Assembly (NCBI GenBank): GCA_963669155.1
Contig: OZ022581.1
Coordinates: 25,054,003 to 25,118,002, forward strand
DNA from: Arbacia lixula
Taxonomy: Eukaryota; Echinodermata; Echinoidea; Arbacioida; Arbaciidae
Length of the DNA: 64,000 bases
Direction of reading: 5' to 3'
Part shown: in pieces, positions 25,201-62,555 of the stretch
Position numbering within the stretch: position 1 is the first letter of the stretch
Layout of the letters: every line of letters begins with the position of its first letter
Position numbers and translations under genes: made by a program
Notes under the pieces: generated by a model
The model's database searches: none
What the model saw: the letters and a program-made list of their open reading frames with translations, nothing else
Told to the model about the DNA's origin: nothing

Positions 25201-28200
25201 TCCGGTATGTTTTAAGACATTTGTATTCCTTTTTGTCAAAGCTACAAATCGATTTGCGCAAAACAATACGTAATGAAAGTTTAAATCTCACTTTAATACT
25301 GTAACATTCAAGCAAGCTTATGGTCATGCTTGAAAAAGACCATTCACATTGTGCCTTAGATCATTCACGCGATACACGACTTGATTTATTGATCCATTCG
25401 AAGAATCTGTCATATGGGTGCTAACTAAATCCCTCTTTACCTTTAGTCCATTAACCTTCGATTGGTGACATTCTTTACAAGACATATTCCGTAACGAGGC
25501 CCGACAATCGATTATTCGAGATTGTTGACGAAGTAAAGTAGGTTTGGGCAATAACTATGTTTACGACATCCAGTCGTAACCATGTCAACAAATTGGTACA
25601 TCCGATGTAAAAACAACATACAAATTTCCCTCTTTATAATAACGTATGAGTAAAAAAGTATGCATCATCGTCCCCCCTTTGTGTTCTTCTTCTTTTTCTT
25701 TCTCATCTTCTCCTTCTCTTTCGTCTTCTTCATCGTCATAATCTTAAAATTTCTATTCTTTGCTTCATCGATTTTTTTCTTCGTCTACTCCATTGTTCTC
25801 TATTTCTTCATCTGCATTATCATCCCCTTCTTCTTCTTCTTCTTCTTCTTCTTCTTCTTTTTCTCCTTCTTCTTCTTCTTCTTCTTCTTCTTCTTCTTCT
25901 TCTTCTTCTTCTTCTTCTTCTCCCCATATATCATGTTTCTCATATAATCATAAATGTTCTTTCTGTGGTTCTTTCCCTTTCTCATTGCTCATGTAGTTCG
26001 TATAATTCTATAATTTTCACAGCTCGCATAATATACATACACGATGTGAAAAGCATACATGAAATAAATGTCGAAATGACACAATAGATTGACACTTGCA
26101 TAACCCTACATAGTCATAGTCAAACATAGCCCTACTTAGTGTCGCCTTCAGTTTGAAAGCGTAGTCCTTCAGTTTTCAGACGGATTCCGATCAATAACGG
26201 AATCACAAACCTGACCAGACATACCAACAGATTATGCATGACCAAACAATCCATTAGATTGCATACCATAGTTGTACTAGAATGCAGATACTTGTGTCAT
26301 CTGCTCTTTCGCACATCACAACTAGGCACTGACATATGACATTAGGAGTTTGCCTTACCAAAGGAATCAAATTCTTAGAGTGTACATTTTTTTTCTTCTC
26401 CATACACGGCAAGATCCATGGGGAAAATGTGTTATCAATCTTAATCCATTAATATCATTAAACCAGGGTAGGCCATTCATTGTTTGAAAACTGTCCTACC
26501 AGGGTGGCTTGCTTTTTACATTTCTTGACATTCTAAACAATATTTTGAATGCTCCATAAACACAAAAAATGACATGTAAAATTGACAAGCATACAAATAA
26601 GAGCACGGTTTGGGAGCTTCTCCATCCAGGGTGCTCAACCTTCAATGACTTGCTGTTTTTCCTGGAATTCTGTTACTATCATGAGCCGTACGATAGACTA
26701 GTTGACATGGACTTGTGTGGACCTCAAACCCATTATCTCGTGTTCAAAGACGAATACACGTTACCACTGCGCTGCTTTCAGGAGCTTGGAGTCAGAGAAG
26801 TGAACGAGACACGGAGACAGTGGTGTCACTTTTATAAATCATCGTCTGAGTTGACCGAGACACAGAGACAGTGGTGTCACTTTTAGAAATCATCGTCTGA
26901 GGTGACCGAGACACATGCAGAGACAGTGGTGTCACTTTTAGAAATCATCGTCTCAGTTGACCGAGACACAGAGACAGTGGTGTCACTTTTAGAAATCATC
27001 GTCTCAGTTGACCGAGACACAGAGACAGTGGTGTCACTTTTAGAAATCATTGTCTCAGTTGACCGAGATACAGAGACAGTGGTGTCACTTTTAGAAATCA
27101 TCGTCTCAGTTGACCGAGATACAGAGACAGTGGTGTCACTTTTAGAAATCATCGTCTGGGGTGACCGAGACACAGAGACAGTGGTGTCACTTTTAGAAAT
27201 CATCGTCTGAGTTGACCGAGACACAGAGACAGTGGTATCACTTTTAGAAATAATCATCTGAGTTGACCGAGACACAGAGACAGTGGTGTCACTTTTAGAA
27301 ATCATCGTCTCAGTTGACCGAGACACAGAGACAGTGGTATCACTTTTAGAAATCATCGTCTGAGGTGACCGAGATACAGAGACAGTGGTGTCACTTTTAG
27401 ATCATCGTCTGAGGTGACCGAGACACAGAGACAGTGGTGTCACTTTTAGAAATCATCGTCTCAGTTGACCGAGATACAGAGACAGTGGTGTCACTTTTAG
27501 AAATCATCGTCTGGGGTGACCGAGACACAGAGACAGTGGTGTCACTTTTAGAAATCATCGTCTGAGTTGACCGAGACACAGAGACAGTGGTGTCACTTTT
27601 ATAAATCATCGTCTGAGTTGACCGAGACACAGAGACAGTGGTGTCACTTTTAGAAATCATCGTCTGAGGTGACCGAGACACATGCAGAGACAGTGGTGTC
27701 ACTTTTAGAAATCATCGTCTCAGTTGACCGAGACACAGAGACAGTGGTGTCACTTTTAGAAATCATCGTCTCAGTTGACCGAGACACAGAGACAGTGGTG
27801 TCACTTTTAGAAATCATCGTCTCAGTTGACCGAGACACAGAGACAGTGGTGTCACTTTTAGAAATCATTGTCTCAGTTGACCGAGATACAGAGACAGTGG
27901 TGTCACTTTTAGAAATCATCGTCTCAGTTGACCGAGATACAGAGACAGTGGTGTCACTTTTAGAAATCATCGTCTGGGGTGACCGAGACACAGAGACAGT
28001 GGTGTCACTTTTAGAAATCATCGTCTGAGTTGACCGAGACACAGAGACAGTGGTGTCACTTTTATAAATCATCGTCTGAGTTGACCGAGACACAGAGACA
28101 GTGGTGTCACTTTTAGAAATCATCGTCTGAGGTGACCGAGACACATGCAGAGACAGTGGTGTCACTTTTAGAAATCATCGTCTCAGTTGACCGAGACACA

Positions 28201-29452
28201 GAGACAGTGGTGTCACTTTTAGAAATCATCGTCTCAGTTGACCGAGACACAGAGACAGTGGTGTCACTTTTAGAAATCATCGTCTCAGTTGACCGAGACA
28301 CAGAGACAGTGGTGTCACTTTTAGAAATCATTGTCTCAGTTGACCGAGATACAGAGACAGTGGTGTCACTTTTAGAAATCATCGTCTCAGTTGACCGAGA
28401 TACAGAGACAGTGGTGTCACTTTTAGAAATCATCGTCTGGGGTGACCGAGACACAGAGACAGTGGTGTCACTTTTAGAAATCATCGTCTGAGTTGACCGA
28501 GACACAGAGACAGTGGTATCACTTTTAGAAATAATCATCTGAGTTGACCGAGACACAGAGACAGTGGTGTCACTTTTAGAAATCATCGTCTCAGTTGACC
28601 GAGACACAGAGACAGTGGTATCACTTTTAGAAATAATCATCTGAGGTGACCGAGATACAGAGACAGTGGTGTCACTTTTAGAAATCATCGTCTGAGGTGA
28701 CCGAGACACAGAGACGGTGGTGTCACTTTTAGATCATCGTCTGAGGTGACCGAGACACAGAGACAGTGATGTCATTTTTAGAAATCATCGTCTGAGCAGT
28801 ATACCCCAACAATAACGGGCATGATATCGCAGTCATAGCTTCATGAGCATTGTTAGGAAAAGAGAAAAACTATCATTGGTTAAGACCATACCTACATTCA
28901 TAATCGTACTGTCCCCATCAGCACGCGATGTCTCTTTCGTCTTTACAGTATCTCCGCCCTCTCCTGTCCCATACACAGAAAACCCTTTTGCTAACATTTA
29001 AATGATATTGATCATACATGATTCTAAGTTTGTTAAATTGTATTTATGAAATTCCGAATGAAATCATATATAAGTAGATAAATGCTAAAGAAAATCGCAG
29101 AAACAATTCGTACCATGAACTCCATGTTAGATGCTTCCGGTGAAACCTGTCCTCTTAGCAGGTTGTGTCGGTCGAGGATTCCTTGAATCTCAGACGCAGA
29201 AAACGATGTCGATCTCTTCTGTCGTGATCGTCCGTAGTTGTCGTCATGGTTGCCATGTTCCCCTAGCTTCTTCCCTCTAGCGAAGGTCCGCGAGTCGAAG
29301 CCCTTGAAAAGGGCGTCACTCGCGTTTGCTGAGAAAAAAAGCGGCGCTCCAACAATAAATCTTCCATTTTGGGGTTCACCGTGGTTCAGAGCAGTTGCCT
29401 TCTCAACTACCAGACCAAAGACGAATAGAATAAATCCGTGAACTGTTTTCAT
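12761..29452 (-). CDS. CAP/SCP-EGF-ShKT-SEA-like type I membrane protein
   Basis: Thirteen minus-strand coding exons join with perfect phase: 29452-29114, 24176-23949, 22395-22289, 21678-21587, 20913-20884, 20212-20123, 17594-17478, 16959-16933, 16311-16063, 15358-15300, 14807-14701, 14136-13877, 12990-12761 (1935 bp, 644 residues), all with GT-AG introns. Order: signal peptide (1-22); furin-type RQKR at 77-80; CAP domain about 85-230 with RHNLLRG, the PEASNM helix, CLWEHGNPENI, CGHYTQVVWHN and YIITCNYGPAGNY; Cys-rich hinge with CTQCASGVGEC (about 240-265); EGF-like (266-296); six-Cys ShKT domain (298-333, CEDTHQYC...CPLMCGLC); Gly/Thr-rich stalk (363-391); EGF-like (398-426); a SEA-like module (about 427-610, YGVIVLIYTS, TSWCNVNFGTCC, SFLDQDALYQAV); transmembrane helix 616-641; tail LFKG. 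It is probably a cell-surface or shed CAP protein related in layout to GLIPR1/PI16/CRISP types; the ligand is unknown. The first ATG with a clean signal peptide was taken as start. Confidence 0.87.
13000..13876. other. Intron 12 of the CAP gene
   Basis: This is AT-rich intronic sequence between exon 13 (ends 12990) and exon 12 (13877). I see no repeat of note and no extra exon. Confidence 0.5.
14390..14696 (+). repeat. (GA)n tract abutting a 5' splice site
   Basis: About 300 bp of GAGA with GGGAGAGAGAAAGAGA and CAGTGATAAAGAAGG sub-units. The unit GACAGTGATAAAGAAGGGAGAGA occurs twice (about 14429 and 14513). In the sense strand of the CAP gene this is a polypyrimidine tract beginning a few bases after the exon 11 donor at 14700. 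The long open frames seen through it on both strands are artefacts of the dinucleotide repeat. Confidence 0.9.
15130..15267 (+). repeat. (GT)n and G-run microsatellite
   Basis: Three GTGTGT arrays are separated by G runs of 9 to 15 bases (for example near 15206 and 15253). It lies in intron 10 of the CAP gene, about 30 bp beyond the exon 10 donor. Purity is high, so length is likely polymorphic. Confidence 0.9.
17117..17325. mobile_element. Two truncated MITEs side by side
   Basis: TTAAAGGGAAAGTCCATCCTG at 17117 is the left end of the TTAA-flanked family (as at 3111 and 18242) and fades out by about 17200. From about 17253, AAGGTTTCCATAGAGATTGCC through ATGCAACAGGTCCC is the right half of the family found complete at 19168-19332. 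Both lie in the intron between exons 7 and 8 of the CAP gene. A (CT)n run of about 28 bases at 17054-17081 is adjacent. Confidence 0.6.
17700..18241. other. Intronic sequence with AGTAGTA-rich patch
   Basis: Between about 17710 and 17870 the sequence is a degenerate trinucleotide run (GTAGTA, GCAGTA, GAAGTA). The rest is plain intron of the CAP gene. No exon was recognised. Confidence 0.45.
18242..18732. mobile_element. TTAA-flanked long-TIR MITE, copy B
   Basis: TTAAAGGGATAGTTCACC at the left and GTGAACTATCTCTTTAA at the right are inverted, each end closing on TTAA. The inner similarity to copies A and C includes CATGAAAGAAAC-like words and a central TTTATGACGTCACGTG. It sits in the intron between exons 6 and 7 of the CAP gene. 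At 491 bp it is non-autonomous. Confidence 0.8.
19168..19332. mobile_element. 165-bp MITE, CCAGGRCCCTGTTGCAT termini
   Basis: The left end CCAGGACCCTGTTGCATAAA and the right end TTTATGCAACAGGGCCCTGG are inverted. Both continue inward through ACTTACCATTAATGGTAA-type sequence. Other copies are at 38014-38157 (complete but diverged) and 17253-17325 (right half). This copy is inserted just before a LINE 3' fragment. Confidence 0.8.
19333..19735 (+). pseudogene. LINE 3' end with Cys-His motif
   Basis: The plus-strand translation reads SCTLCAVHIETVARLFWECP then LSRRFLDDF, the C-terminal Cys-x2-Cys...His/Cys motif that follows the reverse transcriptase in several LINE clades ('C..C....E...HLFW.CP'). 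It ends about 19493. The downstream AATAAAGTTTTTATTGG and A run at 19705-19728 look like the element's 3' tail. Only the 3' end is present. It lies in an intron of the CAP gene, on the opposite strand to that gene. Confidence 0.65.
21830..22279 (+). repeat. (GA)n / (GT)n tract abutting a 5' splice site
   Basis: About 450 bp dominated by GAGA with embedded GTGTGT islands at about 21893 and 22224. On the CAP gene's sense strand it starts nine bases inside intron 3, directly after the exon 3 donor (GTGAGTGTGG). Long open frames on both strands here are repeat artefacts. Confidence 0.9.
22436..22932. mobile_element. TTAA-flanked long-TIR MITE, copy C
   Basis: GATTAGTTCACCCTGAAGAT at the left is inverted relative to TTCAGGGTAAACTATCCCTTTAA at the right. 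CATGAAAGAAACAT and GAAGGTTTGACGAAAATCCGTC follow. It has the same family structure as 3111-3556 and 18242-18732; the left TTAA has mutated. It lies in intron 2 of the CAP gene, 41 bp from exon 3. Confidence 0.78.
22958..23027. repeat. Perfect 33-bp-arm hairpin
   Basis: Positions 22958-22990 are the exact reverse complement of 22995-23027, separated by the four bases GTGG. The arm starts GTGAATAAAATCACAGG. It lies 25 bp outside MITE copy C, in intron 2 of the CAP gene. It could be a tiny foldback element, a recent inverted duplication or a double-stranded RNA source; nothing proves transcription as a hairpin. Confidence 0.9.
23040..23948. other. Remainder of CAP intron 2
   Basis: No further exon or recognisable element is seen. 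A palindromic GTGACGTCGTCACGTG patch lies at about 23101-23118. Confidence 0.4.
24838..24938. repeat. Exact 50-bp tandem duplication
   Basis: The 50-base unit starting GCTCGACTTATTTATTCC occurs at about 24839 and again at 24889, identical by eye and directly adjacent. It lies in intron 1 of the CAP gene. Confidence 0.9.
25060..25150 (+). repeat. GA and G-run microsatellite
   Basis: GAGAGAGA with a run of about 13 G at 25072-25085, then AGAGACAGAGACAAAG. It is intron 1 of the CAP gene. The surrounding 24.2-25.6 kb is otherwise plain intron. Confidence 0.8.
25678..25921 (+). repeat. (TTC)n microsatellite
   Basis: It is degenerate at first, then a nearly pure CTT array from about 25828 to 25920. 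The overlapping Phe- or Ser-homopolymer open frames are not genes. It is intron 1 of the CAP gene; 25.9-26.8 kb beyond it holds no recognisable feature. Confidence 0.9.
26796..28797. repeat. 51-bp minisatellite, about 39 units, with higher-order blocks
   Basis: The unit GTTGACCGAGACACAGAGAC + AGTGGTGTCACTTTTAGAAA + TCATCGTCTCA (51 bp) repeats for about 2 kb. Variants include GGTGACC, ATACAG and WG-type GTCTGGGG. A marker variant ACACATGCAGAGACAG occurs at about 26910, 27681 and 28144; the last two are 463 bp apart and their blocks are the same by eye, so whole blocks were duplicated. Because 51 is a multiple of three, frames stay open on both strands; these are not proteins. It lies in intron 1 of the CAP gene. 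Confidence 0.93.
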
Positions 29453-33097: not shown

Positions 33098-33634
33098 TGA
33101 GGCTATCTCTATCTATCTCTATCTCTAGCCTATTTCTCTCCAGTGCTGAAGGAAGGCCTCCTCATCATTTTTCCATTTTGATCTATCTTGTGCCGTTCGC
33201 TTCCATGTCATACTACCATATTCTCTAATATCGTCAATCCACCTCCTACTTTGCCTGCCTCTTCTTCTGGTTTTAGCCCTAGGGGCCCAGATGGTTAGTT
33301 TATAAGTCCATCTATCATCTTTCCTCCTGGCCAGATGACCAGCCCACCTCCATTTCTTTGATTTAATTTCCTGTACTATGTCCCGTACTTTAGTTTTCTT
33401 TCTCAAATCCTGGTTTCTAACTTTGTCCCTCTTTGTAACACCAATCATAATTCTTTCCATAGCCCTTTCGGTTACTCTAAGTTTTCCATCCAGTATCCTA
33501 GTTATGGTCCATGTTTCTGCTCCATAAGAGAGCACAGGTATGATGCATTGGTTGAAAATCTGTTTCTTGAGAGAAAGAGGGAGCTTCTCATCACGAAAGA
33601 TAAAGTTGAGCTTGCCAAATTTTGGCCAAGCCAA
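33098..33634 (-). pseudogene. LINE reverse transcriptase C-terminal fragment with simple tail
   Basis: An uninterrupted minus-strand frame of 169 codons carries KFGKLNFIFRDEKLPLSLKK, SYGAETWTITRILDGKLRV, RAMERIMIGVTKRDKVRN, WRWAGHLARRKDDRW, GRQSRRWIDDIREY and WKNDEEAFLQHWREIG. This is the C-terminal part of an RTE-like LINE polyprotein, after the catalytic palm, probably 5'-truncated on insertion. It ends at a stop followed by a (TAGA)n-type tail (33098-33127 on this strand), the kind of microsatellite 3' end common in RTE elements. It is well preserved, so it is younger than the copy at 31465. Confidence 0.85.
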
Positions 33635-33639
33635 CTGAT

Positions 33640-35505
33640 GATGAGGCTACCCTTGTATTAATACTTCATAGAGTACCAGACAGTATATTATCACGAGAGG
33701 GTCTTTGGTGTTACTGTGCCTGGTAATGTAATCTTTATAATACATACTTGTCCGGTTAGTGCTTAAAATGGGATTTGATTTCTTCAAACTGTAAAGAATT
33801 GTACGTTCGATTTCTGCTGCAAGTACATTTGGATAAAAGATGTTATCTCAGAGTCTCATTATTTGCCTTGACCATTGCCATTCATAACTTTGTTTTCATG
33901 ATCTTAGGAATATGTTTAGGCTATTCCATTAAACATGATTAAAGGAAACTTCACTCCAAACGAAATTTCTTTATCACATTTTCGGGAGCAGAATTTCATA
34001 CAAAGATGATCAAATTTGTCTTGCTGAGTAGCTGGCTAGGAAGTTTTGGAAGGCACCAAAATACCGTCGTCTTCTTTAAGTGAGTGAGTGCGGCCATGTT
34101 GAAGTTTTTTTTTTTTTTTGTGGGGGGGGGGGGGGAGGCTGGACCCCCTAAGAAGATTTGAAGAAGCAGCTCGGAAGAATAGACGCGCTGTCGTGGGCCC
34201 AGCCAGCTTATCGGCAAGCAGTACATTCCTGCAATTTGGCACAAAGCTTTCATTTGTAGGGCTTTGGACCTTCCGTTCGAATGAGTGAACTGAGCTGGGT
34301 AGTTTTCTGAAGTTGTTTATCACAATTTTTCGTTAGATTTTGAGGTGCGATTTTTCAGGTCAATAAATTCTAAGAGTTTGGACAATCTCTATCGACTAGC
34401 GTCGCCACGCTGTTCGCTGCTCATTTCAGGATTTATTTATAAGATGGAAATCGCTCTTAAGAAAGAAAATGTTTATTTTCTACCTAAAAATATTGTTTAC
34501 TTATACAATTTTTTTAACCAATATTTGTTTGTAATGAACAATCGCATTTTGGTTATTCATTTAAAACAAAACTGGAACATCGCCGATCAATGATCGAGCA
34601 ACTGCGCGTGCGGGGGCGGAAACGTCATAATATCACGAGAAGTTCGAGACAACATTGGTGACACAGAACAAGTAAGCTTTAATATAGCTGAGAACATCGC
34701 GATTTTTACCTCTGTCAGACATTTTGGTGGGTTTTATAAAGGTCATTAAGAAGGATGAAAGTTCATCCATCAGCATATTGCTTCATTATTTGGGGTGAGA
34801 TTTCCTTTACAAGACTTGACCAAATTACCACTCATGATCGATTTCAATGCATTCTCAAATTTACATTTTGGGCCATATTTTTTTCCTTCATCCGATTAGC
34901 AATTTCATTCTGAATCATAACTGATGATTTAATGCATTGGTAAAAAAGTCGGAATTTTGGCCCACCTTTCATAATCATGATACCAGGAATTAAAAATACA
35001 GGTATGCAGGAGGAAAATGCAAGGCATATGCTGTAAGAGTTGGTCAGAGACTATCACAAATGCAGTAGGAAAATAATTGTAAACTGATACTCATTAATGA
35101 TGATTATGTTTTACACAATACATTCATTAGCAGTGTCCCCATGCCTGGGCCAAAACCATCCACACTGAATCAAAAACACTCTACTAACTTGCAACAATGT
35201 AACAATTAAGAGATATGCATCTACAATTAAAGATGGCCGGTCCCTTTTACAAACATCTACAAACTCCATGAAAGTTTGCACATGATAAGTTAGTACGTAC
35301 CTTTGGGATACCAACTGTGAAATTTTAAGTTTAGAGGTATTATACTTCCCGTAGAATAAATGAAAATCTAATTAGTTTTCACTGAGATTTGACTATTTTC
35401 GAATATTACGCTTTGTCGATTCCAGGGAAAGGTTTTATGGCCACTCTCTCTCAAATGATGCCAAAGTCAGGGAACAATCAGAATTAGGTCTACAAAAGGG
35501 ACGGG
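33640..35505. other. Non-coding interval
   Basis: T and G runs lie at 34107-34136. A GC-richer patch at about 34590-34672 ends in ACAGAACAA|GTAAGC, a possible non-coding first exon for the methyltransferase gene downstream, but unproven. No coding region is supported. Confidence 0.35.
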
Positions 35506-35509
35506 CAAT

Positions 35510-35933
35510 CCATTTCTTTCATAAAAATATTTAAATAAAAGAGTTGCCAAAGCTGTTGTTTATGTATAATTTCTCACATTTATATACTTTCTCCCATACG
35601 TGTACTGCATCAAAGTAATAGCTTTGATCCAGCTGAGGCATGGCGGCTTGTCATTGTTCAAAACCCACCTGCACCCAACAAAGGAAATTATATTTGGTAT
35701 AGTGTCGAGAATTTGTCAATCTGACGGTCAATCGGATCAGGGTCTCTTTAGCCACTAACCCGTCTCTGTGGTCTAGTGGTAAAGGCACCGGCGTTCAAAG
35801 CTGGGGGCCCGGGTTCGATTCCCGGCAGAGACATTTTTTCGGCATCACCAATTTTTCCAAAGGGTAGATAGCTCTGGGGAACCTTGATTTAAGCTACGCC
35901 TAACATTATTCTCTTCATCCATTTCTTTCACAA
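35510..35933 (+). repeat. tRNA-bearing repeat unit, copy 1
   Basis: One unit of about 412 bp runs from CATTTCTTTCATAAAAATATTT to the next CATTTCTTTCACAATATATATG. It contains GAGTTGCCAAAGCTGTTG, then GATCCAGCTGAGGCATGGCG, then the tRNA-like gene at 35762-35833, then GATAGCTCTGGGGAACCTTG. Two more units are in tandem at 60.7-61.4 kb and an inverted fragment is at 44215. A (TA)n run follows at 35934-35981. Confidence 0.85.
35762..35833 (+). tRNA. tRNA-like gene, anticodon UCA (copy 1)
   Basis: A 72-nt cloverleaf can be drawn: acceptor GTCTCTG/CAGAGAC fully paired with discriminator A; three-base-pair D stem GTC/GGC; anticodon stem CCGGC/GCTGG with loop GTTCAAA, so T33 and anticodon TCA; variable loop GGGC; T stem CCGGG/CCCGG with loop TTCGATT. 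The A box TGGTCTAGTGG and B box GGTTCGATTCC match Pol III consensus, and TTTTTT follows at once as terminator. UCA would read UGA, but the 4-nt variable loop excludes selenocysteine tRNA. It may be a tRNA pseudogene or a suppressor-type tRNA. Confidence 0.75.
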
Positions 35934-35935
35934 TA

Positions 35936-35981
<46 letters not shown>
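35934..35981. repeat. (TA)n microsatellite
   Basis: A TATATA array directly bounding the tRNA-bearing repeat. Similar arrays bound the other copies (44332, 60679, 61457), suggesting it belongs to the unit or its target. Confidence 0.85.
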
Positions 35982-39900: not shown

Positions 39901-40944
39901 ATTTAGGTCATGTAATAATTCGAATTACTACACGACCTTAATTATTTGATGTAGCGACAATAATATCTTAAGGTCGTGTAGCAATTGGAATTGCCACACG
40001 ACCTAAATAATAACGTCGTGTGGCAATTGGAATTACCACACGACGTAATAATTTGGGTCGTGTTTTTGACGGTTCCTGCTTCCATAGATGTCGTTGTTGT
40101 ATGGTGCGAAGCCTGTTGATCGAGTGGTCTTACGGAGTCTAAGTGTGTCAGTGAGGAGCAGCATAGCACTTTGCTACTAGACAGCGGCCCGTGTTCAGAA
40201 CAGATGTTTAACGCAAGCCGTGTACTAAGCCGAGGTATAAATCTGTAGCTAGGGGTGGTGTAGTCTTCAGCTGTGACTAGCAAAATCACTCAGTACGCGA
40301 CCGCGTACTAAACCTATACGTACTTAGACCTCTGTTCGGTCAACTGGCATCTGACCTTAGTACCAATGGTGAGGTCTCTTAATCAGCCTTCTATAAGCAC
40401 ATGTTGCTGTCTGGATTCGGTAATTTCGTCCACTCTTCATTCATTACCTGTGTACAAATTTATACGAAATGATAATGTTTATTTTTTTTTGTAAGAGAAG
40501 AAGATGCAATGGATAATTTTGATTACAATTCCATACCCTATGCGCTTATACACGCTTCACTAAAGCATTATATTCTCCATCTCATCAACAGCAGACTGCT
40601 TCTTCAGAAGAACTTTTGTACGCTTTCCTTTCCTCAATCGAGAAGTCGATGAGGCTGTGTGTTCTGACGACGTACGCGCCGTGGCTCAGAAGAAAGGTTA
40701 TGACGTCAAATCTTTCAAGACGACTATCAGCATCGACGTCACATCCATGTTCGACGACGAGTCCGATCTTGGAGACTGGTTGACGGATTTTTACACGCAG
40801 ACCGCTCACTTCCGGCGAGGCGCGTCGCCCGAGCTCCTGGCAGCCATGAAGGAGTTTTGGCGGTCGATAGCCTTCGAGGAAACAGATGGGTCGCTCCGGG
40901 CGAGCGGTGATGAGGAGCTGCTCATCATTTCTAAGCGCAAATAG
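36990..40944 (+). CDS. HNMT-like SAM-dependent methyltransferase, gene A
   Basis: Three coding exons, 36990-37233 (ATG at 36996), 37580-37888 and 40592-40944, join in phase with GT-AG introns and give 299 residues; human histamine N-methyltransferase has 292. The order matches HNMT: N-terminal HKDHDRYTKVFIDGF (HNMT-type 'HGKY..SF'), glycine motif INVLGVGVGEGEF at the exon 1/2 joint (SAM motif I), VAVDPNPLMI with the ribose-binding acid, LISAMNSLYYTGD (post-motif strand, HNMT 'IQMLYYVKD'), GRLLVAI, and a C-terminal ..LLIISKRK strand. The acceptor TTCAATTCCTCAG at 36989 implies an upstream untranslated exon. By eye alignment the HNMT histamine contacts E28, Q143 and N283 are H, N and D here, so the methyl acceptor may not be histamine. 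Probably cytosolic. Gene B is its inverted neighbour. Confidence 0.87.
38014..38157. mobile_element. MITE, CAGGGCCCTGTTGCAT termini, copy 2
   Basis: CAGGGCCCTGTTGCATGAAACTTACC at the left and an inverted, more diverged ATTCAACGGGGTCC at the right; the interior matches 19168-19332 (TGGCTGTCGAGTGGTGTTACC). It lies in intron 2 of HNMT-like gene A, immediately before the foldback element. Confidence 0.72.
38164..40086. mobile_element. 1.9-kb foldback element made of nested hairpins
   Basis: The outer ends TATGGAAGCAGGA..CGTCAA and TTGACGGTTCCTGCTTCCATA are inverted. Inside are several hairpins: 38325-38499 (arms about 75), 38512-38928 (GCTGGATCCTGACCCTTCTA arms), 39384-39479 (96-nt palindrome) and about 39488-39745 (arms with GGTTCTAGCCGC). 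The word ACACGACGTAA/ACACGACCTAA recurs in both orientations, often around GGAATTGCCACACGAC. No protein-coding frame is recognisable. It occupies most of intron 2 of HNMT-like gene A. Confidence 0.8.
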
Positions 40945-41032
40945 AGGCACTTTATAAAGCTGTACCGTGTATTTCGTTGCATCAAGTTATAGTCACATGA
41001 AAGGAGATGAAAGCTTTGATCCTAGTATTTTG

Positions 41033-42121: not shown

Positions 42122-42443
42122 ACACATACAACAGTCATTCTCGTGGTCTTGATGAATTGAGTACCACGTTGTTACATACACTGTACATAATATTTCTTTG
42201 TCGACTGGTGTATTCTCATTACCCATAAAACTGATCTGTACAGGGTTATACCTGTTCATAAGAAAGATGAGTATTTCTAAACTATAGACCAATCTGAATA
42301 TAACCTTGTTTTTCGAAAATACTCGAGCGAATTGTGAACACTAGGCTGTATACATGAGCGGAAATCGCTCTTCGAAGGTGGGGGAGGGAGGGCATATTTT
42401 TGTTTGAACTTTAATAATCTAATTTGCTTTTTTACAGTGTTTG

Positions 42444-42474
<31 letters not shown>

Positions 42475-42499
42475 CTATATATTTATAAATGATATTGAT

Positions 42500-44060
42500 A
42501 CATATGTATATTACCGTCCAATAGCAAACTTTAAACTCTTTGCTAAGATTCTAGAGAAGATGGCAGCACATCAGCTACAAGAATATCTAGGTAAATCTGA
42601 CCTACATGCAAAGTTTCAGTCAGGAGACAGGTCATTTCATAGTGTTGAGACTGCTCTCTTCAGAGTTACAAATGACATTCTGTTGTCACTTGATAGGGCG
42701 AGGAGGTTATGCTTTCTTGCTTGATTTGTCCGCAGCTTTTGATACCATTGATCACGATACTTTGCTTAGACGCCTATCACTGAGATTTGGAATATGTGGT
42801 GAAGCGCTTAATTGGATGCAGTCGTCAGGACGTACTCATAATGTAGTCATTGGAAATGATCGGTCTTCAGGGGGGCATTTCATCAAAGGACTTGTCGGAC
42901 GTTTTATCCGACAAACTGTTATAAGCTACTGAAATGCTTGCATCTTATTGGCCGAGAGCAAACTTGTCGGATAAAATATCCGACAAGTCCTTTGATGAAA
43001 TGCCCCCCAGGACATGTACTCACCAAAGGGGTACCGCAAGGATTTGTATTGGGTCCAGTCCTGTTTACATTATATACCTCTCCTCTAGAATCTTTGATTG
43101 GCAAACATAACATTGTCAAGATGTTTTATGCTGATGACACTCAGTTGTATATTACATTCAAACAGTCAAGACTTGAAAATGTTTCTTCTCAGATAGCAAA
43201 CTGTGTTCAAGCAATCAAAGAATGTCTCACCAAACCTGTCTTAAGTTAAATTGCAGTAGGACATAGTTCCTTCATGTTTCATCCCAGTTTAAAAATACGA
43301 GTCAAGTCGGAAAGCAAATTGAAGCTCCAAAAACATGTAGAAATCATGGGGTAATCTTCGACAATAAGCTTACTTTGGACAATTTCATCACACAAAAATA
43401 TCGTTCAACTTCGTTTGCACTCGTGATTTTATTCGTGATTTTATTGATAGAAGTACAAGTGAACGTTTGGTTCACGCATTTCTTATGTGTCATTTTGACT
43501 TCTGCAATAGTCTCCTTTTTTAATTACCACTTCGCCAAATTCAAAGACTACAAACTATCCAAAATGCAGCAGCACGACTTGTTACACGTACGAGGAAACA
43601 TGTTTCATTATCCCCTTTCTTATGTGATTTGCATACCAGTCCAGTCTCGCACTAAGTTCAAGATATTGTTACCAGCCTATGAATGTTTTCATGGATTAGC
43701 TCCTGCTTATCTAAAAGACTTCCTCACCGTATACAAACCAACACGAAATCTTCGATCATGTAAAAAGAATTTGTTGTTGTTCCTCCTATACCTACGAGGA
43801 CATTATGGTGAACGCTCATTTGCCCATGTTGCTCCAGTTTTCGGGAATAGCCTCCCTGACACTCTTAGAAATATCAACTCCATAGATAAGTTTAAGTCTG
43901 CCCTTAAAACACACTTATTCCAAATGTCAAAATAATTTTAAGGAACTCAGTAACATAATTTCTCTTTTTCTTTGCTCCTTCAAGCGCATTGAGATTTTCT
44001 TATGTCTATGTGTTATGCGCTATATAAAAATGTTATTTATGTTTATATTTATATTTTAAA
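42500..44060 (+). pseudogene. CR1/L2-like LINE reverse transcriptase, interrupted
   Basis: Plus-strand segments in order: RPIANFKLFAKILEKMAAHQL (finger region), [15 protein letters not shown], then after a frameshift near 42700 [20 protein letters not shown] (palm motif A, '[11 protein letters not shown]'), GVPQGFVLGPVLFTLYTSPL (motif B), FYADDTQLYITF (motif C, catalytic ADD), and after further changes KILLPAYECFHGLAPAYL and FGNSLPDTLRNINS..FKSALKTHLF (C-terminal block). The 3' end GCGCTATATAAAAATG is typical of CR1/L2-type tails. Catalytic residues are conserved, but the frame is broken by at least one shift, by a stop about 43248 and by a 137-bp MITE at 42871-43007. It is 5'-truncated, with no endonuclease part. 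Confidence 0.85.
42871..43007. mobile_element. 137-bp MITE inserted in the LINE RT frame
   Basis: GGGGGCATTTCATCAAAGGA at the left and the exact inverted TCCTTTGATGAAATGCCCCC at the right; the TIRs run about 45 bp with two mismatches (ending TTTTATCCGACAA). It is flanked by CAG at 42868-42870 and 43008-43010, a putative 3-bp target duplication. Omitting the element and one CAG leaves the RT reading frame continuous on both sides, which fixes the boundaries. Confidence 0.9.
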
Positions 44061-44214
44061 TTACCGCGGAACTTTCGAATAGACTTTAAAACTATATGGC
44101 TATTTATGTATTTTTTTACTTATTTATTTTTGTTTGCTTTTGGTGTGTGTGTGTTGGGGTGTGTATTCTTGTTGTTATATATGTATAAATGTAAGAAATT
44201 ATACATATACAGCA

Positions 44215-44347
44215 GCTTTGGCAACTCTTTTATTTAAATATTTTGTGAAAGAAATAGATGAAGAGAACAATGGTAGGCGTATCTTAAATCAAGGCTCCCC
44301 AGAGCTATCTACCCTTTGGAAAAATTGGTGATATATATATATATATA
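44215..44347 (-). repeat. Inverted fragment of the tRNA-bearing repeat
   Basis: GCAGCTTTGGCAACTCTTTT, AAATATTTTGTGAAAGAAAT and CCAGAGCTATCTACCC are the reverse complement of the tail-to-head junction of the unit described at 35510 and 61032. The tRNA part is absent. It ends at an (AT)n run. A fragment across the junction shows that the ancestor was tandem. Confidence 0.8.
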
Positions 44348-49560: not shown

Positions 49561-49635
49561 TCAAAGCTTTCATCTCCTTTCATGTGACCAAAACTTGATG
49601 CAACGAAATACACGGTACAGCTTTATAAAGTGCCT

Positions 49636-52600
49636 CTATTTGCGCTTAGAAATGATAAGCAGCTCCTCATCACCGCTCGCCCGGAGCGACCCATCTGTTT
49701 CCTCGAAGGCTATCGACCGCCAAAACTCCTTCATGGCTGCCAGGAGCTCGGGCGGCGCGCCACGCCGGAAGTGTGCGGTCTGCGTGTAAAAATCCGTCAA
49801 CCAGTCTCCAAGATCGGACTCGTCGTCGAACATGGATGTGACGTCGATGCTGATAGTCGTCTTGAAAGATTTCACGTCATAACCTTTCTTCTGAGCCACG
49901 GTGCGTACGTGATCAGAAGACAGCGACTGGTCGACTTCTCGAATGAGGAAAGGAAAGCGTTTGAAAAATCTTCTGAAGAAGTTATCAGCTGTTGATAAAG
50001 TGGAGAAGAGATAATGCTGCACAGTAGGAGCTCGTATATTTTGTATCGAGGGTTCCTATGCTCTTACACACACATTGAAACATCTGTTTTATGAAGATTT
50101 GTAGGCAGGTAATTATCAAACAAGGATAGCACCATGTGCTTTAGAAAAAAACTGAGAAAGAGGATATGTGTTGGGATTTGTACTAAGCGTTAAACAAAAC
50201 TTTTGACACTTCCGAAAAAAAATAGAATAGGTTACAACTCAAATGAGCCTGAAACCTACACACTCAATCAATGGATATAAAATAATTAACATTAGACAAT
50301 GTGATATTTTATCAATCAAATATCTGTTGAAATAAGCAGTTGATTTTTTGATGAGTTTTTCACTTTGGGACTTTTTGATCATTGGATCACTTTTGGACTC
50401 ATTTGGATCTAAATCTACGTCAAAACAAGACAATGGCTATTAAGCATCACTTTATGTTAACCAGCAACTTTTCTGCCAGAAACATCATGCATTACTAATG
50501 ACACTGTATCACACATGTCAGTCCTCTCCAAACTGCCTTTACTAAGTAATTAATAGTTCGTGTTGATTGTACCTACCAGTTCCCATGACGACGAGGAGTC
50601 TACCGTGCTCACTCAGCATGGAGGTGAGTTGATCAAAAGCTGTCTCCAGGTCACCAGTGTAGTACAGGGAATGCACGGCAGATATCAGCTGATACTTGGT
50701 AGCAGCAAGGGGGCTCTCAGCGCAGAACCGTGAAAGCGACCCTTCAAACGCTTTGAAGTTGAGTGGAAGTGTACTGATGTTGATCTTAAGGGCTTGGATC
50801 ATCAGCGGACTAGGATCCACGGCAACCAGACAAGTGGAGAAGTATGACGACAATCTTTTCATTAAGAGAATCTCAACGTCACCTGAAGAATAAATAATAA
50901 GCATAACTATAACTACCAGAAGAAGAAGAACGAGGGGTTACAAACTACTTTGATTCTTGTGAAAAAATAAAAAAGAAGAAAATGTCCTTTCATAAGAAAT
51001 CAAGATATCAGTAAAAAATGAAGAAAAAAAAAGTAGTCTAGAAATGTAACTCGATAAATTCATTATTCTCTCGATAGAGGGAGACATGGGTTGTTTCCCC
51101 ATGATTCTGATCACAAAGGGAAGAGAGAGAAAAGAAAGTACGAACGGGAGACGGGCTGAGAATAATGGGGAAAATGAGAGACAAACTGATAATGGAAAAA
51201 TAAAATGTAGATAACTCGCATATAGCCAGGGAGCAAACCCCGATTTGGGGGTCCACCTGACATGGGCGGTTGTAAAATGACGTTGGGTATCAATGTGTTC
51301 AGGAGACTAGTCTGCACATTTTCATTTTGGACTACCTTTGCAATATGCTGCTGGAAAGAAATGGCAGCCATTTTTCAAAATGGCCGCCGTTGAAATGTAG
51401 TATTGACCACTATTTAAGATAACATTTCCTATTTTTTTAGATGGTAGCACATTTGCTGGGCTTTGTGGTGATTCTCATAACAATTCAAGGCAAGAAATGT
51501 TTTTTTTTTACAATTTTCCCCAAAGATTTTAATTTTATGGTCATACACATTCCTTCATATTTCGGAAAATTTATTGATTAACGAAATGAAAACTGTTCTG
51601 ATATCTGTCTTATACGATGTGCAAAAATCAACTTAAGTGTCTAGCTTAAAGGGACATACAGCTGAGCTTCTGTGGCGCGATGTCGTTTATAGAGGGCGCT
51701 GCATTCGCTGGAGTGTGGCCAAGCTCGGTTAATATTCGGGAATCTCCGTATAACTTTGGCAAACAAGCACTCAATTGCAGTGATACGAGTGACTTTACAT
51801 GTGATAGGTGCTCATTTTGTGTATATGCACCATAGCGTGTCAAAGGCTGTTGCTAGTACTAGTAGCACACACGCGCGAGATCGCTACTAATACAGATTTG
51901 TAGCTCTTGAGGGTGGTGCAGTGCTGGCACTGGGCATGCTGGGGTGGGGATGATAAGACCGCCGAACACCGTCGATCGCAGCGCCCTCTATAAACGATAT
52001 CGCGCCACAAAAGCTCAGCTGTATGTCCCTTTAATATGGAGTTATAATAATCTAAAGTCAGTAACTTGATATCAGTGAAAGGTGCTTTTTGAACATATTT
52101 TTTCCTCTGCCATATGTTTCACACGCAAAACTGAATATTGGTTATGTATGTCGCTTGTGTCCACTATGTGCCTCTTGCGTACATATTTTCTCCCATATTA
52201 CAATTTGTCACTTGTCTTCATCATCATGCGGATGGTCCTTCCTAATGGAGATTTAGGCATACGCAATCCTGACGCAGGTGAAAACCTTCAAATGAGGAAC
52301 CCGCCTTATATACTGGTTGTATTTTTAATTTATGTTTTCATGCCTCACTTTTTTTTCACTGAGTCCTGAAATGAGCTATATCGCTTTAAAATAATAGTAG
52401 AGTGACATGTTGCACTGTTTTTCACATCCACTTTGATCTACCTAATGACCGCCATTTTCCAAAATGACCACCGCGAGTGACTACCTTTGGCAAAGAATTT
52501 CAAAACGAAGAGTTGAAATTCATGTGGGTTTTAATCTAATTCTATGGACGGACATTCTCTGTAACAGCTGACCCTCATGCTGACGGCTGGTTTCGTCTTT

Positions 52601-56095: not shown

Positions 56096-56745
56096 CCATT
56101 GGTATTCTGAATATACGGCGACAAAGAGTGACAATTGGCAAAGGAAAACCCGTATGGGGTCGTTCATTTAGCCTCTATCTAGAAAACTCGATAATTTTGA
56201 CTAGTAGGGTGTATTCTAAAATAATACGCTCGATTTTTCTTTTTTTTGTACACCGTCTGCCATATAGTCCGGGAGCATGTCCACAGAAAAAAAGTCCCGT
56301 GGGATTTTTTGTATGAAAGCAAACCACCTATCCAGATGTCTCAAGGACACCCCAATGAACAATAAAAAACATGTTGGCAATCTTGTAACCCTGGCAGAAG
56401 ATAGTTATTGAGGGTGAAATGAAAATGACTAAAATGTGCTTAATTTTACCAATTTTTTAGGGGTAGATTAGTGTTGGTATATAGGGTGCTTCAAAAAACA
56501 ATATTTTTATGAGGTAATAACCAATTCTGTGTTGAATTAACAGCAGGCAAATAATGTTAACCATAGAATAAAACTTTATTTGGTTGAAATCGGTTCAGAA
56601 ACGGCTGAAATATCCTAAATATATTTTTCATGATATTTGTGGCAAACCAACTTTTATTTGATTTTTTAAAGAAAATGTTTTGAAATCTTACGCGTGACTG
56701 AAGCTGAACGTGTAACGCTAAAGAGAAGGAGATGCTGCAGTCCAG

Positions 56746-59700
56746 TTGACGATTGATATTAAAACCACCATTACAAACAGTGAGGAGGACATGAACACCG
56801 TGTACAGAGCAGCTAACATTCTCAGAAAAGCCATCAGCAAAGCAGAGGAATGGACGTTTGAAGGCTCTTTCACAGGCGTGACAAGCAAACATGTACCCAA
56901 AAAGCTGTACTGCTGTTTTCGGTGGGTGATTCGAGGGCCACACACTACTCTGTCCACAGATACGAAGTCATTGCAGGTGAACAAACATTCCATCAGTCTA
57001 GCCCAAGGCACAGTGAACATGTTACGGTCCAGGTACCAAGTCAGCAACAGGAAGTCACAGTCCCTCAGGAAGATGTGCGAAATGCCACACAGCTTGCAGT
57101 TGGAGCGTCAACATTCTGAATGGGTTTGGAATGTCTGTGGGATATACACGACTCCTGCGGATGGAAGGGCAAGTTGCGACTTCTGTCCTACAACGAATGA
57201 AGGCCAACGATAGTGTCTACATAGCCCCGGACATTGTAAAGGGAAGACACATATATTTCGCAGTAGACAAAGTGGACTTTGCGGAAGACTCTCACGATGG
57301 AAAGCGCACCCTGCATGGGACAGCAATGGCCATTTACCAAAGATGCCAGCAAGACGATGGGACACCTCGACTAGAACTGCCTCGCCAAGATCTGAAAGAC
57401 TCCGCAAAGGATCTTATGAGCTGGGCAACGCCCAAGCTGCTGGAGTGCCCAAAGCCATCTCTCAAACCACAAAGCCCTGTCTATGCCTCCTTTAGTCTTA
57501 AAAAGGATCCTCTACAACCTTTAGATGATTCCCTTCCAGATGTCGCCTGGCTGATGGGTCGGACCCTGGTTAGGTCCCATCAGCAGACGGTCAGAGAAGA
57601 GACAGTCCTACTTCCAGACAAACACGAAACTGTCACTCAAGGAAATAATGATGTCCCAACATGGTCAGCATACCACTCAATGACTGCCAGTGAGGTACTA
57701 CCAACCACACGAGTAGGCACACCGCCCCTGATTGCTGCACCTGCAGCTATATACAAACTGGCAAAGCAGCTGCAGATGACCCTCAATGACATGGAAGACT
57801 TAGTACTGCGGCCAGGGGAACTTCACATCGTGATGGCACAGCTCCGCTGCATTGGCACCTACATCGAGAACAGCGGGATAGATTTCTGTTGGACGGAAGC
57901 CGATTTGTATGGACCAACCACAGTGAGGCAAATCCTTGAAGGAAAACATGTCAGAAGAGCAATATAGAAGCACATGTGGTCCCACTACAGACGCTGTTCT
58001 ATCTGTACCAGACTGCGTTTCTTCAGGACCACCCAAATCTGCAAGGAATTCTCACAGAAGCAGCACAAGCTCTTGCTCGGTCATGTAGAGATGGCAGCTG
58101 TGAAGACATACAGGAAGCGCACTCTGTTATAGTTCAGACAATCCAGGCATGCGGTGTGACAGAGAAGATGGCTCAGTTTGATGCTGCAAATGAAAATAAA
58201 CCCCTGCTAGTGGAGATGCTTATGTTTATCAGGTCCGTCAGAGTCGGAGACTGGAACCTACACATCCGGTCAATAGAGAACTTCACCAAGCACTTCTTCG
58301 TCCTGGACAAGCAGAACCATGCTCGCTTGATGCCACTGTATCTGGCTGACATGGAACTCCTAAGACGTTCAGACCCTGATATCTATCAGGAATTCATGGA
58401 GGGAAACTGGGTGGTGAACAAGAATGGGAATGTGGCATTCTGTGCTGTAGGGGCAGGCCACGCACTTGAACACATCGACCGCTCCATGAAGGTAGCTGGG
58501 GGACTTGTGGGTATAACCCAGAATGCCTACGCTCGTTCCAAGTTCTTCTTAATCTCACCAGAACTGACCAGACTTGCCGACGATGCCTGTGACATTGCTG
58601 GATTCGCATCGCCTGCTCAGACGCGTCATCATCACCCTCTCTGCTGCAGTTGCAGCTGCAGCAAGACATGTCTACCGATTGTCTCCTCCAGGTTTATGCT
58701 GGGTCTGGACTTCGACACCAACAACATGCGGGTGAACAGCCTGCGATCTTCTTTGACCTCCACTACCTTGTCTCCAGAATCGCTCACATCCACTATTGGA
58801 AGATTCACAAACCCATTTGAAGACGAAAGCGGTGACCTGTTCAACCCGGTGACAAAGGCAGTCGTGCCAGAGAAGGTCAAGAGTGATCTGTGCGCGGAAA
58901 GCATCATTGGCCAGAAGTTGTTTGAGGAATTCGTCACCGACCGCATCAGTTCAGCAGACGTCAATGTATGGGACAAAATGAAGAAGAGGAATTAGCTTCA
59001 GACATGGAAAACATCGGGGAAACGCGTGAACGTCAACACTGGAGACAAGGTAGTGGAGCTCAAAGAAGATCGCAGACTTTTCACCAGCATGTTGTTGGTG
59101 TCGAAGTCCAGACCCAGCATAAACCTGGAGGAGACGATCGGTAGACATGAGTTGTAAGTAGTGCCAAGGTCAATGTTTGCCGCTGATGGTACAATGCTAC
59201 ACTGCCACCCGAAGAGCAGCCTGATGGCCATCCTTGAGAAGCTCCAAAAAAAATGTCACTGATGCAGAAGGTCCACTTCCTGACAATGGCACAGAACCTG
59301 GAAACAGACCTGCAGCGATGAAAGTGGCCGTTGTCGATGTCATGGCAGATGTTCAGGCCCTACACAAGTCAGATAACATCACATATTGTAACCAGCTGGA
59401 TGACCAGTTCACCGACTGTATCCTTGAGAAATACAGTGATGCCTATGAACTCCATCTGGTCTTTAATCGATATGATGTTCCTACCGCTCTGAAGAGTATC
59501 ACACGTGACAGAAGGCTGTTGGGGTCAGCCAGTCATCGCCTACCACATAACAGATGCTACAAACATAGCAAAGGTTCTACTGAAACGACTCTTGTCTCAT
59601 GTGAAATCAAAGGTGGAGCTCATTGGCTATCTTGCAGTGAAAATGTTGATGAAGGCGCATGCCGAACAGAAACAGGTGGTGGTCGCATGGGGCACACAGT

Positions 59701-60625
59701 GTCGAGCTAAGCACAAAAATATCAGCCATTTTGAAAGTCAGCAGGAAGAAGCAGACACAAAACTTATCCTGCATGCTGATGACGCAACTGCTAGTGGGGC
59801 TTCCATCATCAACATTCACTCGCCTGACACCGATGTCTTCGTTCTTGCAATCCGGCGGAATCCAAAGTTATGCAGCAACACTAACTTTGTAACTGGAGTA
59901 GGTGCGAAGCGACGAGTCATCCCCTGGGACCAATCTACGAAGCCATGGGACCAACAAAGGCTGCTGCTTTGCCAGGATTGCATGCCTTTAGTGAAGCTGG
60001 CAAAACAGGGGGCTTTGCTGGCAAGGGCAAACTTGCATTCTGGAAGATCTTCCGTGACACAGGGGATGATAGCAACGAGATATCTGCTCTGAGAAGTCTA
60101 GGAACCATGCCAAGGCCGAGTGATGCCATATATGATGGTCTCAAAGAGTTCCTCTGCAAGGTCTACGTCCCAGAGAGCAAAAGTACCAAGGTAGAAAAGC
60201 TGAGATGGTGGCTCTTCACAAAGAAACAGACCGAGTCAGAGAGGTTGCCACCTACACAAGAGGCACTGCGACAAGCAATCTTGAGGGCACACTACCAAGC
60301 AATCGTGTGGGACAATGACACTGTTCTAAACCCAGAGGTACCATCTCCACAGGACTACGGCTGGAGCTTTGAAGACGATGCTTGGGTTCCTGTGATGACT
60401 AAGCAACAGCCTGCACCAAACGCGGTCATTCAGCTGGTGAAGTGCGGAAATACAAGGTCAAAATGTGACAATGCTAGGTGCTCCTGTTGCAAGGCAGGAT
60501 TAAACTGCACAGAATTATGTGCCTGTGATCTCGGTGAGGGGTGTGACAATCCTGAGGTGTCATTTCATGATGAAGAGGATGACGACTCTGGGGATGACGA
60601 GGACGATGTTGAAAACTTGATTTAA
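56746..60625 (+). pseudogene. Element-encoded protein with XPG/FEN-like and CXC-like regions
   Basis: One protein in pieces across frames: 56746-57118, 57131-57967, 57976-59150, 59234-59520, 59520-59940, 59945-60625. N-terminal: VYRAANILRKAI, WVIRGPHTTL. Then YFAVDKVDFAEDSHDGKRT, VEMLMFIRSVRVGDW, LYLADMELLRRSDPDIYQEF, ALEHIDRSMKVAGGLVG. C-terminal: RYDVPTALKS, ESQQEEADTKLILHADDA (59740-59785), HSPDTDVFVLA (59817-59849), LPGLHAFSEAGKTGGFAGKG (59973-60029), LPPTQEALRQAILRAHYQA, and a Cys cluster CGNTRSKC..CSCCKAGLNC (60442-60530) with an acidic end. EAD plus DTD plus a 'G..GKGK' helix-turn resembles the XPG I-region and its helix-hairpin; the Cys cluster resembles tesmin CXC. I recall this as an abundant unnamed family of marine animals. 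At least five frameshifts or stops and a 111-bp internal inversion make it non-functional. Confidence 0.75.
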
Positions 60626-60679
60626 ATCATGTGCTAGCTGATTAAAGTGTGACATTTGTGTACCAATCCATCTAAAGAC

Positions 60680-60710
<31 letters not shown>

Positions 60711-60873
60711 CGTGTACTGCATCAAAGTACTAGCTTTGATCCAGCTGAGGCATGGCGGCTTGTCATTGTTCAAAACCCACCTGCACCCAACAAAGGAAAT
60801 TATAATTGGTATAGTGTCGAGAATTTGTCAATCTGACGGTCAATCGTGTCAGGGTCGCCTTAGCCACTAACCC

Positions 60874-60945
60874 GTCTATGTGGTCTAGTGGTTAAGGCAC
60901 CGGCGTTCAAAGCTGGGGGCCCGGGTTCGATTCCCGGCAGAGACA
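60874..60945 (+). tRNA. tRNA-like gene, anticodon UCA (copy 2)
   Basis: Same 72-nt cloverleaf as 35762-35833, with D loop AGTGGTTAAGG and intact A and B boxes. The acceptor 5' strand is GTCTATG, giving one A/G mismatch against CAGAGAC at the fifth pair. TTTTTT terminator follows. Anticodon TCA is retained. Confidence 0.65.
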
Positions 60946-61286
60946 TTTTTTCGACATTACCAATTTTCCCAAAGGGTAGATAGCTCTGGGGAACCTTGAT
61001 TTAAGCTACGCCTACCATTGTTCTCTTCATCCATTTCTTTCACAAAATATTTAAATAAAAGAGTTGCCAAAGCTGTTGTATATGTATAATTTCTCACATT
61101 GATATACTTTCTCCCATACGTGTACTGCATCAAAGCAAAGTACTAGCTTTGATCCAGCTGAGGCATGGCGGCTTGTCATTGTTCAAAACCCACCTGCACC
61201 CAACAAAGGAAATTATAATTGGTATAGTGTCGAGAATTTGTCAATCTGACGGTCAATCGTGTCAGGGTCGCCTTAGCCACTAACCC

Positions 61287-61358
61287 GTCTATGTGGTCTA
61301 GTGGTTAAGGCACCGGCGTTCAAAGCTGGGGGCCCGGGTTCGATTCCCGGCAGAGACA
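61287..61358 (+). tRNA. tRNA-like gene, anticodon UCA (copy 3)
   Basis: Identical by eye to copy 2, including the single acceptor mismatch and the TTTTTT terminator. It lies 413 bp downstream of copy 2 in the tandem repeat. Confidence 0.65.
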
Positions 61359-61455
61359 TTTTTTCGACATTACCAATTTTCCCAAAGGGTAGATAGCTCT
61401 GGGGAACCTTGATTTAAGCTACGCCTACCATTGTTCTCTTCATCCATTTCTTTCA

Positions 61456-61498
<43 letters not shown>

Positions 61499-62118
61499 TA
61501 CAAACATAATGTTTTGTTTACCCAGTTAACTGGTACTGTACTTGTCGACTTCTCCATTTCATACCAGTTAATGGACATGCATAATCTGTATTGCTTGTTT
61601 ATTATATCTAAAAAGGTTCTGTCATTCCATCAAGGAGTCTGCCAAGTGAAATTGTTCTTTAGAACAAATTTAGAACACGTATCAGACAGTTTAACAAATG
61701 TGTTAGGATTTCATGATATTTTCCCAAATTATTAACGAAAAATTATTCCGTCACCTTTACTGTAAATGTTATATTCATGGATATCTCGGCTGTTTCTGAA
61801 CCGATTTCAACTAAATAAGGTTTGTGCTATGCTTTACATATTATGCTTGCTGATAATTATATACTGAGTTGACATCACCTCACAAAAATATTGTTTTTTG
61901 AAGCGTTCTCTATACAAGCATTGACCTACCCCTAAAAAAAGAGGTTATTCCAAGTACAATTTTGTTGTGTTCTTTTCATCCTTAATAATTATTATCTGCC
62001 AGGGTTACAAGAGTGCCAACATGTTTTTTATTGTTCATTGGGGTGCCCTTGAGACATCTGGATGGGTGGTTTGCTTTCATACAAAAAATCCCACAGGGAT
62101 GTTCATGCTCCTGGACTA

Positions 62119-62555
62119 ATAGAAGTGTACTTAACATAAGACGCTTAATCCAAAGTAAAACAAAAATGATGATACTTTTTTTTGTTACTACTTAATTACA
62201 TGCCTAACATGCCTATCTATTTTCTACCTCTATATATAGTAATATAAGTAGAATTTATGAAATAGCTAATTAAAGCCATAAGAACTCGTTGATGATTATC
62301 ATATTTCAATCTTAGTTACGTTATAATTTTCATTTTTCCAGGGCTCTTTTTGACATTTCTGCTGGGTCAAATTTTCTTGATTTAGGACCATGTTGAAATA
62401 TCTTAAAGACCCAGACTGGACCCACGACTGAAATTGACAAATCATATACCAATTGAAAGCTTATAATTTCCTAAACACAGCAATGAAAGTTTTATGCATT
62501 TTCATTGCTTACCAGCTGAGTATTTTGCTGAAGAAAGACTCAAATTAACGGTTTT
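62119..62555. other. Flank beyond the transposon
   Basis: Non-coding AT-rich sequence. GACCCAGACTGGACCCACG at about 62408 is partly mirrored by TCTGGTCTGGGTC at 62934. Nothing else is seen. Confidence 0.35.

What the first reader, a model, noticed from the sequence alone, without database searches (positions are those of the whole stretch)
56262..62118. TIR-bounded element carrying an XPG/FEN-like nuclease gene with a CXC tail
Seen: inverted ends of about 350 bp enclose a single degraded gene. Its C-terminal half contains EEADTKLILHADDA, then HSPDTDVFVLA, then LPGLHAF..TGGFAGKGK, then a Cys-rich block. Known: XPG/FEN enzymes have an 'EAEA' acidic pair, a 'T.DSD' strand and a helix-hairpin-helix with a G.G.K loop; tesmin-type CXC domains bind DNA. 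Inference: this unnamed but widespread protein family may be the transposase of a DNA transposon that uses a structure-specific, PIN-fold nuclease instead of a DDE or HUH enzyme. I do not recall a named superfamily of this kind.
Basis: partly seen in the sequence, partly recalled or inferred. Interest (0 to 1): 0.78.

Follow-up and report, generated by a model that had tools for sequence, protein, structure and literature searches.

The report
Degraded Academ-type DNA transposon
This is a dead copy of a cut-and-paste jumping gene whose protein joins a standard transposase to a DNA-repair-type flap nuclease, a kind that appears already known under the name Academ rather than a new kind of jumping gene.

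Summary
The element spans 56265-62118, with imperfect ~350-bp terminal inverted repeats (82% alike over 330 bp) and a 3-bp target duplication ATA. Fourteen further copies (89-99% identical over the left-end probe) were found in the same 607-Mb genome. Of 12 copies with both ends readable, 11 have exact 3-bp duplications (mean 1.5 after random re-pairing). No copy read has a full-length frame.

The window copy probably moved in trans: seven of ten aligned copies, at distinct sites, share a 99-bp deletion of the second catalytic Asp.

Unresolved: what the flap nuclease does in transposition. Open lead: three diverged, intact, apparently single-copy relatives that may be host genes.

The parts
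56265..62118 (+). whole element, 5854 bp, TAGTCCGG...CCTGGACTA
   Evidence: ends and length by comparison with other genomic copies
56262..56264 (.). left target-site duplication ATA
62119..62121 (.). right target-site duplication ATA
56265..56623 (.). left terminal inverted repeat
   Evidence: 82% over 330 bp to the right repeat; left and right repeats are 79-84% alike, in the same register, in each of the 12 copies measured
61770..62118 (.). right terminal inverted repeat
56791..57054 (+). remaining N-terminal coding part before the DDE region; the Cys/His-rich start seen in relatives is missing here (inferred deletion)
   Evidence: frames; a 1313-bp gap relative to L023 is shared with eight other copies
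57119..57958 (+). first part of the DDE transposase region, with the first catalytic Asp (FAVDKVDF; DN.D in relatives); the 33 residues with the second Asp are missing here
57961..58992 (+). second part of the DDE region: helical insertion and the catalytic Glu (GHALEHIDRS), plus linker
   Evidence: fold of the relatives' region
58667..58777 (-). inverted duplicate of 59039-59149 inside the gene
   Evidence: 95% over 111 bp
59039..59149 (+). linker stretch (DKVVELKEDRRLF.SMLLVSKSRPSINLEE), in frame-1 continuity with its neighbours, so taken as the native arm
59318..59520 (+). FEN/XPG nuclease, N part (VVDVMA; VFNRYD, where 9 of the 10 A1 rows covering the column keep D)
59523..59925 (+). FEN/XPG nuclease, central part (EEADT, SPDTDV)
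   Evidence: relatives
59927..60385 (+). FEN/XPG nuclease, C part (LPGLHAFSEAGKTGGFAGKGK; GCD or EAD in relatives, EAG here)
60443..60550 (+). CXC-like Cys-rich tail, followed by an acidic C-terminus
   Evidence: Pfam TCR/MSL2-CXC below cut-off; relatives E 5e-4 and 5e-3, also below cut-off
60708..61470 (+). tandem repeat, two units 98% alike, each with a tRNA-like sequence; present inside this copy but also elsewhere in the window, so not a part of the gene

Best explanation
This is a dead, non-autonomous copy of an Academ-type (AcademX-like) cut-and-paste DNA transposon. Its ancestral protein had, in order: an N-terminal Cys/His region, an RNase H-fold DDE transposase with a large helical insertion like that of the P element, a FEN/EXO1-type 5' nuclease, and a CXC-like tail. 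Most likely the DDE domain binds the inverted ends, cuts them and joins them to target DNA with a 3-bp stagger. The flap nuclease probably trims strands or flaps at the excised ends or at the gapped integration product, and the CXC tail and N-terminal region bind DNA. Shown here: the ends, the 3-bp duplications, the conserved residues, the two predicted folds (of a relative) and the shared deletions. Inferred: the division of labour between the two catalytic domains, and mobilisation of this copy in trans by a protein made elsewhere.
Confidence: 0.83

Rival explanations
1. The flap-type nuclease is itself the transposase, with no DDE chemistry.
For: Its acidic residues are highly conserved and its fold is confident, more so than that of the DDE region.
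Against: A D-D-E triad is conserved in every row that covers it, and that region models as a DDE transposase with the P element first. A fixed short duplication is typical of staggered DDE insertion (recalled).
Confidence: 0.05
2. It belongs to another DDE superfamily, named or unnamed, that acquired a FEN-type nuclease independently of Academ.
For: No Academ reference could be compared. The best fold match is the P element.
Against: Nuclease, DDE, 3-bp duplication and length (5.9 kb; mean 5565 bp for curated bivalve Academ, PMC10294476 passage) all fit AcademX as described.
Confidence: 0.1
3. The gene is a captured host gene or passenger carried by an unrelated TIR element.
For: Two intact relatives, L054 and L055, show no clear TIRs within 1.0-1.9 kb of flank.
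Against: In the 12 copies with both ends in hand, gene and TIRs coincide, including the much less degraded L023. The protein itself contains a transposase-like region.
Confidence: 0.02

Closest known systems
Academ superfamily, AcademX lineage (Repbase; Kojima 2020, seen only through a passage in PMC10045372)
   Same: Eukaryotic DNA transposon with a DDE transposase, an encoded nuclease, 3-bp target duplications and a length of about 5-6 kb.
   Different: No difference found. Direct sequence comparison was not possible.
AcademH lineage
   Same: Same superfamily, DDE transposase.
   Different: AcademH makes 9-10 bp duplications and encodes a helicase. Here the duplications are 3 bp, and Pfam listed no helicase in P0002, P0003 or P0001.
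P-element transposase (PDB 6pe2)
   Different: 8% identity; the P element has no flap nuclease domain and makes 8-bp duplications (both recalled).
EXO1/FEN1/XPG 5' nucleases
   Same: Fold and acidic motifs.
   Different: Fused downstream of a transposase; about 10-16% identity over the aligned parts; in some relatives the first Asp is Glu (3 of 9 rows).
Pfam DUF6589 (PF20231)
   Same: Matches the DDE region in 5 of 11 members of A2, best E 1.7e-13.
   Different: Listed in Pfam as of unknown function. The result suggests that it is a piece of this type of transposase.

Membership tests
Academ / AcademX | terminal inverted repeats bounding the gene | tested here: met
Academ / AcademX | 3 or 4 bp target-site duplication (PMC10045372) | tested here: met
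   11 of 12 evaluable copies exact at 3 bp, 0 of 12 at 4 bp or more
Academ / AcademX | encodes a nuclease (recalled as an XPG domain) | tested here: met
   FEN/EXO1 fold in a relative's model, EXO1 profile hits, same motifs in the window
Academ / AcademX | DDD/E transposase (PMC9587614 passage) | tested here: met
   conserved D-D-E and a DDE-transposase fold at moderate confidence; the window copy itself lacks the second Asp
Academ / AcademX | sequence homology to reference Academ transposases | not testable with these tools
   no Repbase or eukaryotic protein collection is held
AcademH | 9-10 bp target duplications | tested here: not met
   0 of 12 copies with a match of 4-10 bp
AcademH | encoded helicase | tested here: not met
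   Pfam scan of P0002, P0003 and P0001 with the limit at E 10 listed no helicase family; the other relatives were not scanned whole
FEN/XPG/EXO1 5' nuclease superfamily | PIN-like fold with conserved acidic residues | tested here: met
   residue positions inside the model were not inspected in space
FEN/XPG/EXO1 5' nuclease superfamily | Pfam XPG_N/XPG_I match at the gathering score | tested here: not met
   no XPG model listed
Tesmin/TSO1-type CXC domain | Pfam TCR match at the gathering score | tested here: not met
   best 20.8 bits against a cut-off of 23.5, E 5e-4 (P0003); in the window piece 7.3 bits and in the joined read-through 11.3 bits

The most novel reading that the evidence does not exclude
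Three diverged, intact and apparently single-copy relatives (L054, L055, L061; 56-62% identical in protein, synonymous differences saturated at 0.81-0.84, non-synonymous 0.25-0.30) have kept both the DDE and the flap-nuclease regions, and no clear inverted repeats were found beside the two whose flanks were fetched. They may be host genes derived from Academ transposons: a RAG1-like domestication in which a transposase and a structure-specific nuclease are fused in one protein.
Probability: 0.25. Interest if true: 0.65.

Novelty: new member of a known kind. Interest (0 to 1): 0.36.

Why it matters
It turns a motif-level guess into a domain map: one transposon protein with a P-element-like DDE domain and an EXO1/FEN1-like nuclease. 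That makes the role of a flap nuclease in DNA transposition directly testable, and it gives Pfam DUF6589 a likely identity. It does not add a new transposon class.

Tried and rejected
Sequence-only routes failed at first. Pfam, NCBIfam and PDB searches of single window pieces and of a joined read-through gave no XPG or DDE hit. PDB hmmsearch with the DDE profile gave only two weak unrelated chains. Viral, phage and plasmid collections gave no relative, each tested with one piece or pattern at a time (viral; phages, DDE-side piece; plasmids, nuclease-side piece); one viral pattern hit, L001, has no related frame. 'Transposase without DDE' was rejected. AcademH was rejected on duplication length and absence of a helicase. 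The ends of the family with 1818-codon frames (L056) could not be defined: none of the 25 inverted repeats listed (of 66) in 8 kb spans the frame over more than 33 bp, and the copy-boundary search did not complete. Foldseek against the PDB was not accepted, so only VIA-align re-scoring of Foldseek's list was used. Paper searches for Academ together with XPG found none, so the word XPG for Academ is recalled; a search for DUF6589 found only an unrelated paper.

Full report
Observation. The window ends in a 5854-bp element at 56265-62118 bounded by TAGTCCGGGAGC and GCTCCTGGACTA, with inverted repeats alike at 82% over 330 bp. It is flanked by ATA on both sides. The single + strand gene is split over all three frames.

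Copies. The window lies in a 607-Mb assembly of 590 contigs. A 739-base probe from the left end gave 42 matches (40 of 47 candidates scored, so a lower bound). Besides the window itself, 14 places match most of the probe at 89-99% identity, one of them in two parts; the rest are right-hand repeats or shorter, more diverged stretches, which I did not follow. I fetched all 14. With the window that makes 15 copies. Twelve have both ends readable: one had its left end replaced, one its right end outside the stretch fetched, and one its right part reading N. Of the 12, 11 have identical 3-bp flanks and none has identical flanks of 4 to 10 bp. Re-pairing left and right flanks at random gives a mean of 1.49 and a maximum of 8 in 20,000 trials. 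The exception, L010, differs in one base (TAA/AAA). Left and right repeats are 79-84% alike in each of the 12 copies and in the same register, so their inequality is more likely a property of the family than decay.

Degradation and movement in trans. No copy read has a full-length frame; the longest open stretch free of N is 813 codons, in L019 downstream of the gene stretch and not shown to belong to it; the longest that carries the gene's motifs is 665 codons, in L023. Ten copies were aligned (five of 15 left out). To the window, L010, L011, L012, L014 and L015 are 98.1-98.8% identical, L016 95.9%, L021 94.2%, L020 93.7% and L023 91.9%. Seven of the ten share the same 99-bp deletion, which in L023 codes for the stretch ending in SLDLG, the second putative catalytic Asp. 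Nine of ten share a 1313-bp gap relative to L023 in the 5' part; whether each is a loss or a gain in L023 was not tested, but relatives have coding sequence there. Since these copies sit at sites with different flanks, the simplest reading is that already-defective copies were moved by protein made elsewhere. This is inference.

Intact relatives. Protein searches of the same genome found diverged relatives with long open frames: L054 (1513 codons), L055 (1555), L061 (1508), L060 (49%, one stop), L057 (29%, one stop), and more distant ones with frames of 1589-1818 codons as reported by the search, including seven hits of near-equal score with 1818-codon frames on seven contigs. They gave two alignments, A1 (nuclease region, 11 rows) and A2 (DDE region, 11 rows).

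Tail. The Cys-rich tail resembles tesmin-type CXC domains but stays below Pfam's cut-off in the window and in P0002 and P0003 (best 20.8 of 23.5 bits).

What it is. A passage in PMC10045372 (find) states that AcademX makes 3 or 4 bp and AcademH 9 or 10 bp duplications and ties this to the nuclease and helicase they encode. A passage in PMC9587614 lists Academ among the superfamilies with a DDD/E transposase. Passages in PMC10294476 give a mean length of 5565 bp for curated bivalve Academ elements. All tested features fit AcademX; the long duplications of AcademH are absent, and no helicase was found in the relatives scanned. Kojima 2020 is not held, and no reference sequence was at hand. That the nuclease of Academ is called XPG is recalled.

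Mechanism. Most likely the DDE domain does the cutting and joining and the flap nuclease processes strands or flaps left at the ends or at the target gap. No step of the chemistry was shown.

Open lead. L054, L055 and L061 are intact, 56-62% identical to each other, with synonymous differences saturated (0.81-0.84) and non-synonymous differences 0.25-0.30. One search listed no near-identical copy of L054, but it scored only 31 of 160 candidates. No clear inverted repeats were found in the 1.0-1.9 kb flanks of L054 and L055; L061 was fetched without flanks. They may be host genes or the last intact copies of separate families; this was not decided.

Noticed in passing
60708-61057, 61116-61470, 35508-35970, 44184-44332: A repeat of about 350 bp or more with a tRNA-like sequence (Rfam tRNA, 56-61 bits; ARAGORN calls anticodon TCA, SeC, under the bacterial code) occurs twice in tandem inside the element and again at 35.5 kb; a part without the tRNA-like piece lies at 44.2 kb.
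   Followed up: partly
L054, L055, L061 (G000 contigs 8, 9, 15): Three intact, diverged, apparently single-copy genes of the same architecture; no clear inverted repeats found beside L054 and L055.
   Followed up: partly
L056 1-8000 (G000 contig 6): Family with 1818-codon open frames: seven near-equal hits on seven contigs, with repetitive stretches on both sides of the frame in L056; may be a recently active autonomous family.
   Followed up: partly
26801-28796: Minisatellite of 39 copies of a 51-bp unit, open in frames on both strands over up to 206 codons.
   Followed up: no
40564-40986 and 49588-50055: Two closely similar ORF pairs in opposite orientation, looking like duplicated methyltransferase-like genes (resemblance recalled; ORFs).
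   Followed up: no
33125-33646 (-) and 42338-43935 (+): Fragments that look like reverse transcriptase of non-LTR retrotransposons (YADD motif in the second; resemblance recalled; ORFs).
   Followed up: no
A2 DDE region: Pfam DUF6589 (unknown function) matches the DDE region of 5 of 11 members (best E 1.7e-13), so it is probably a transposase core.
   Followed up: partly
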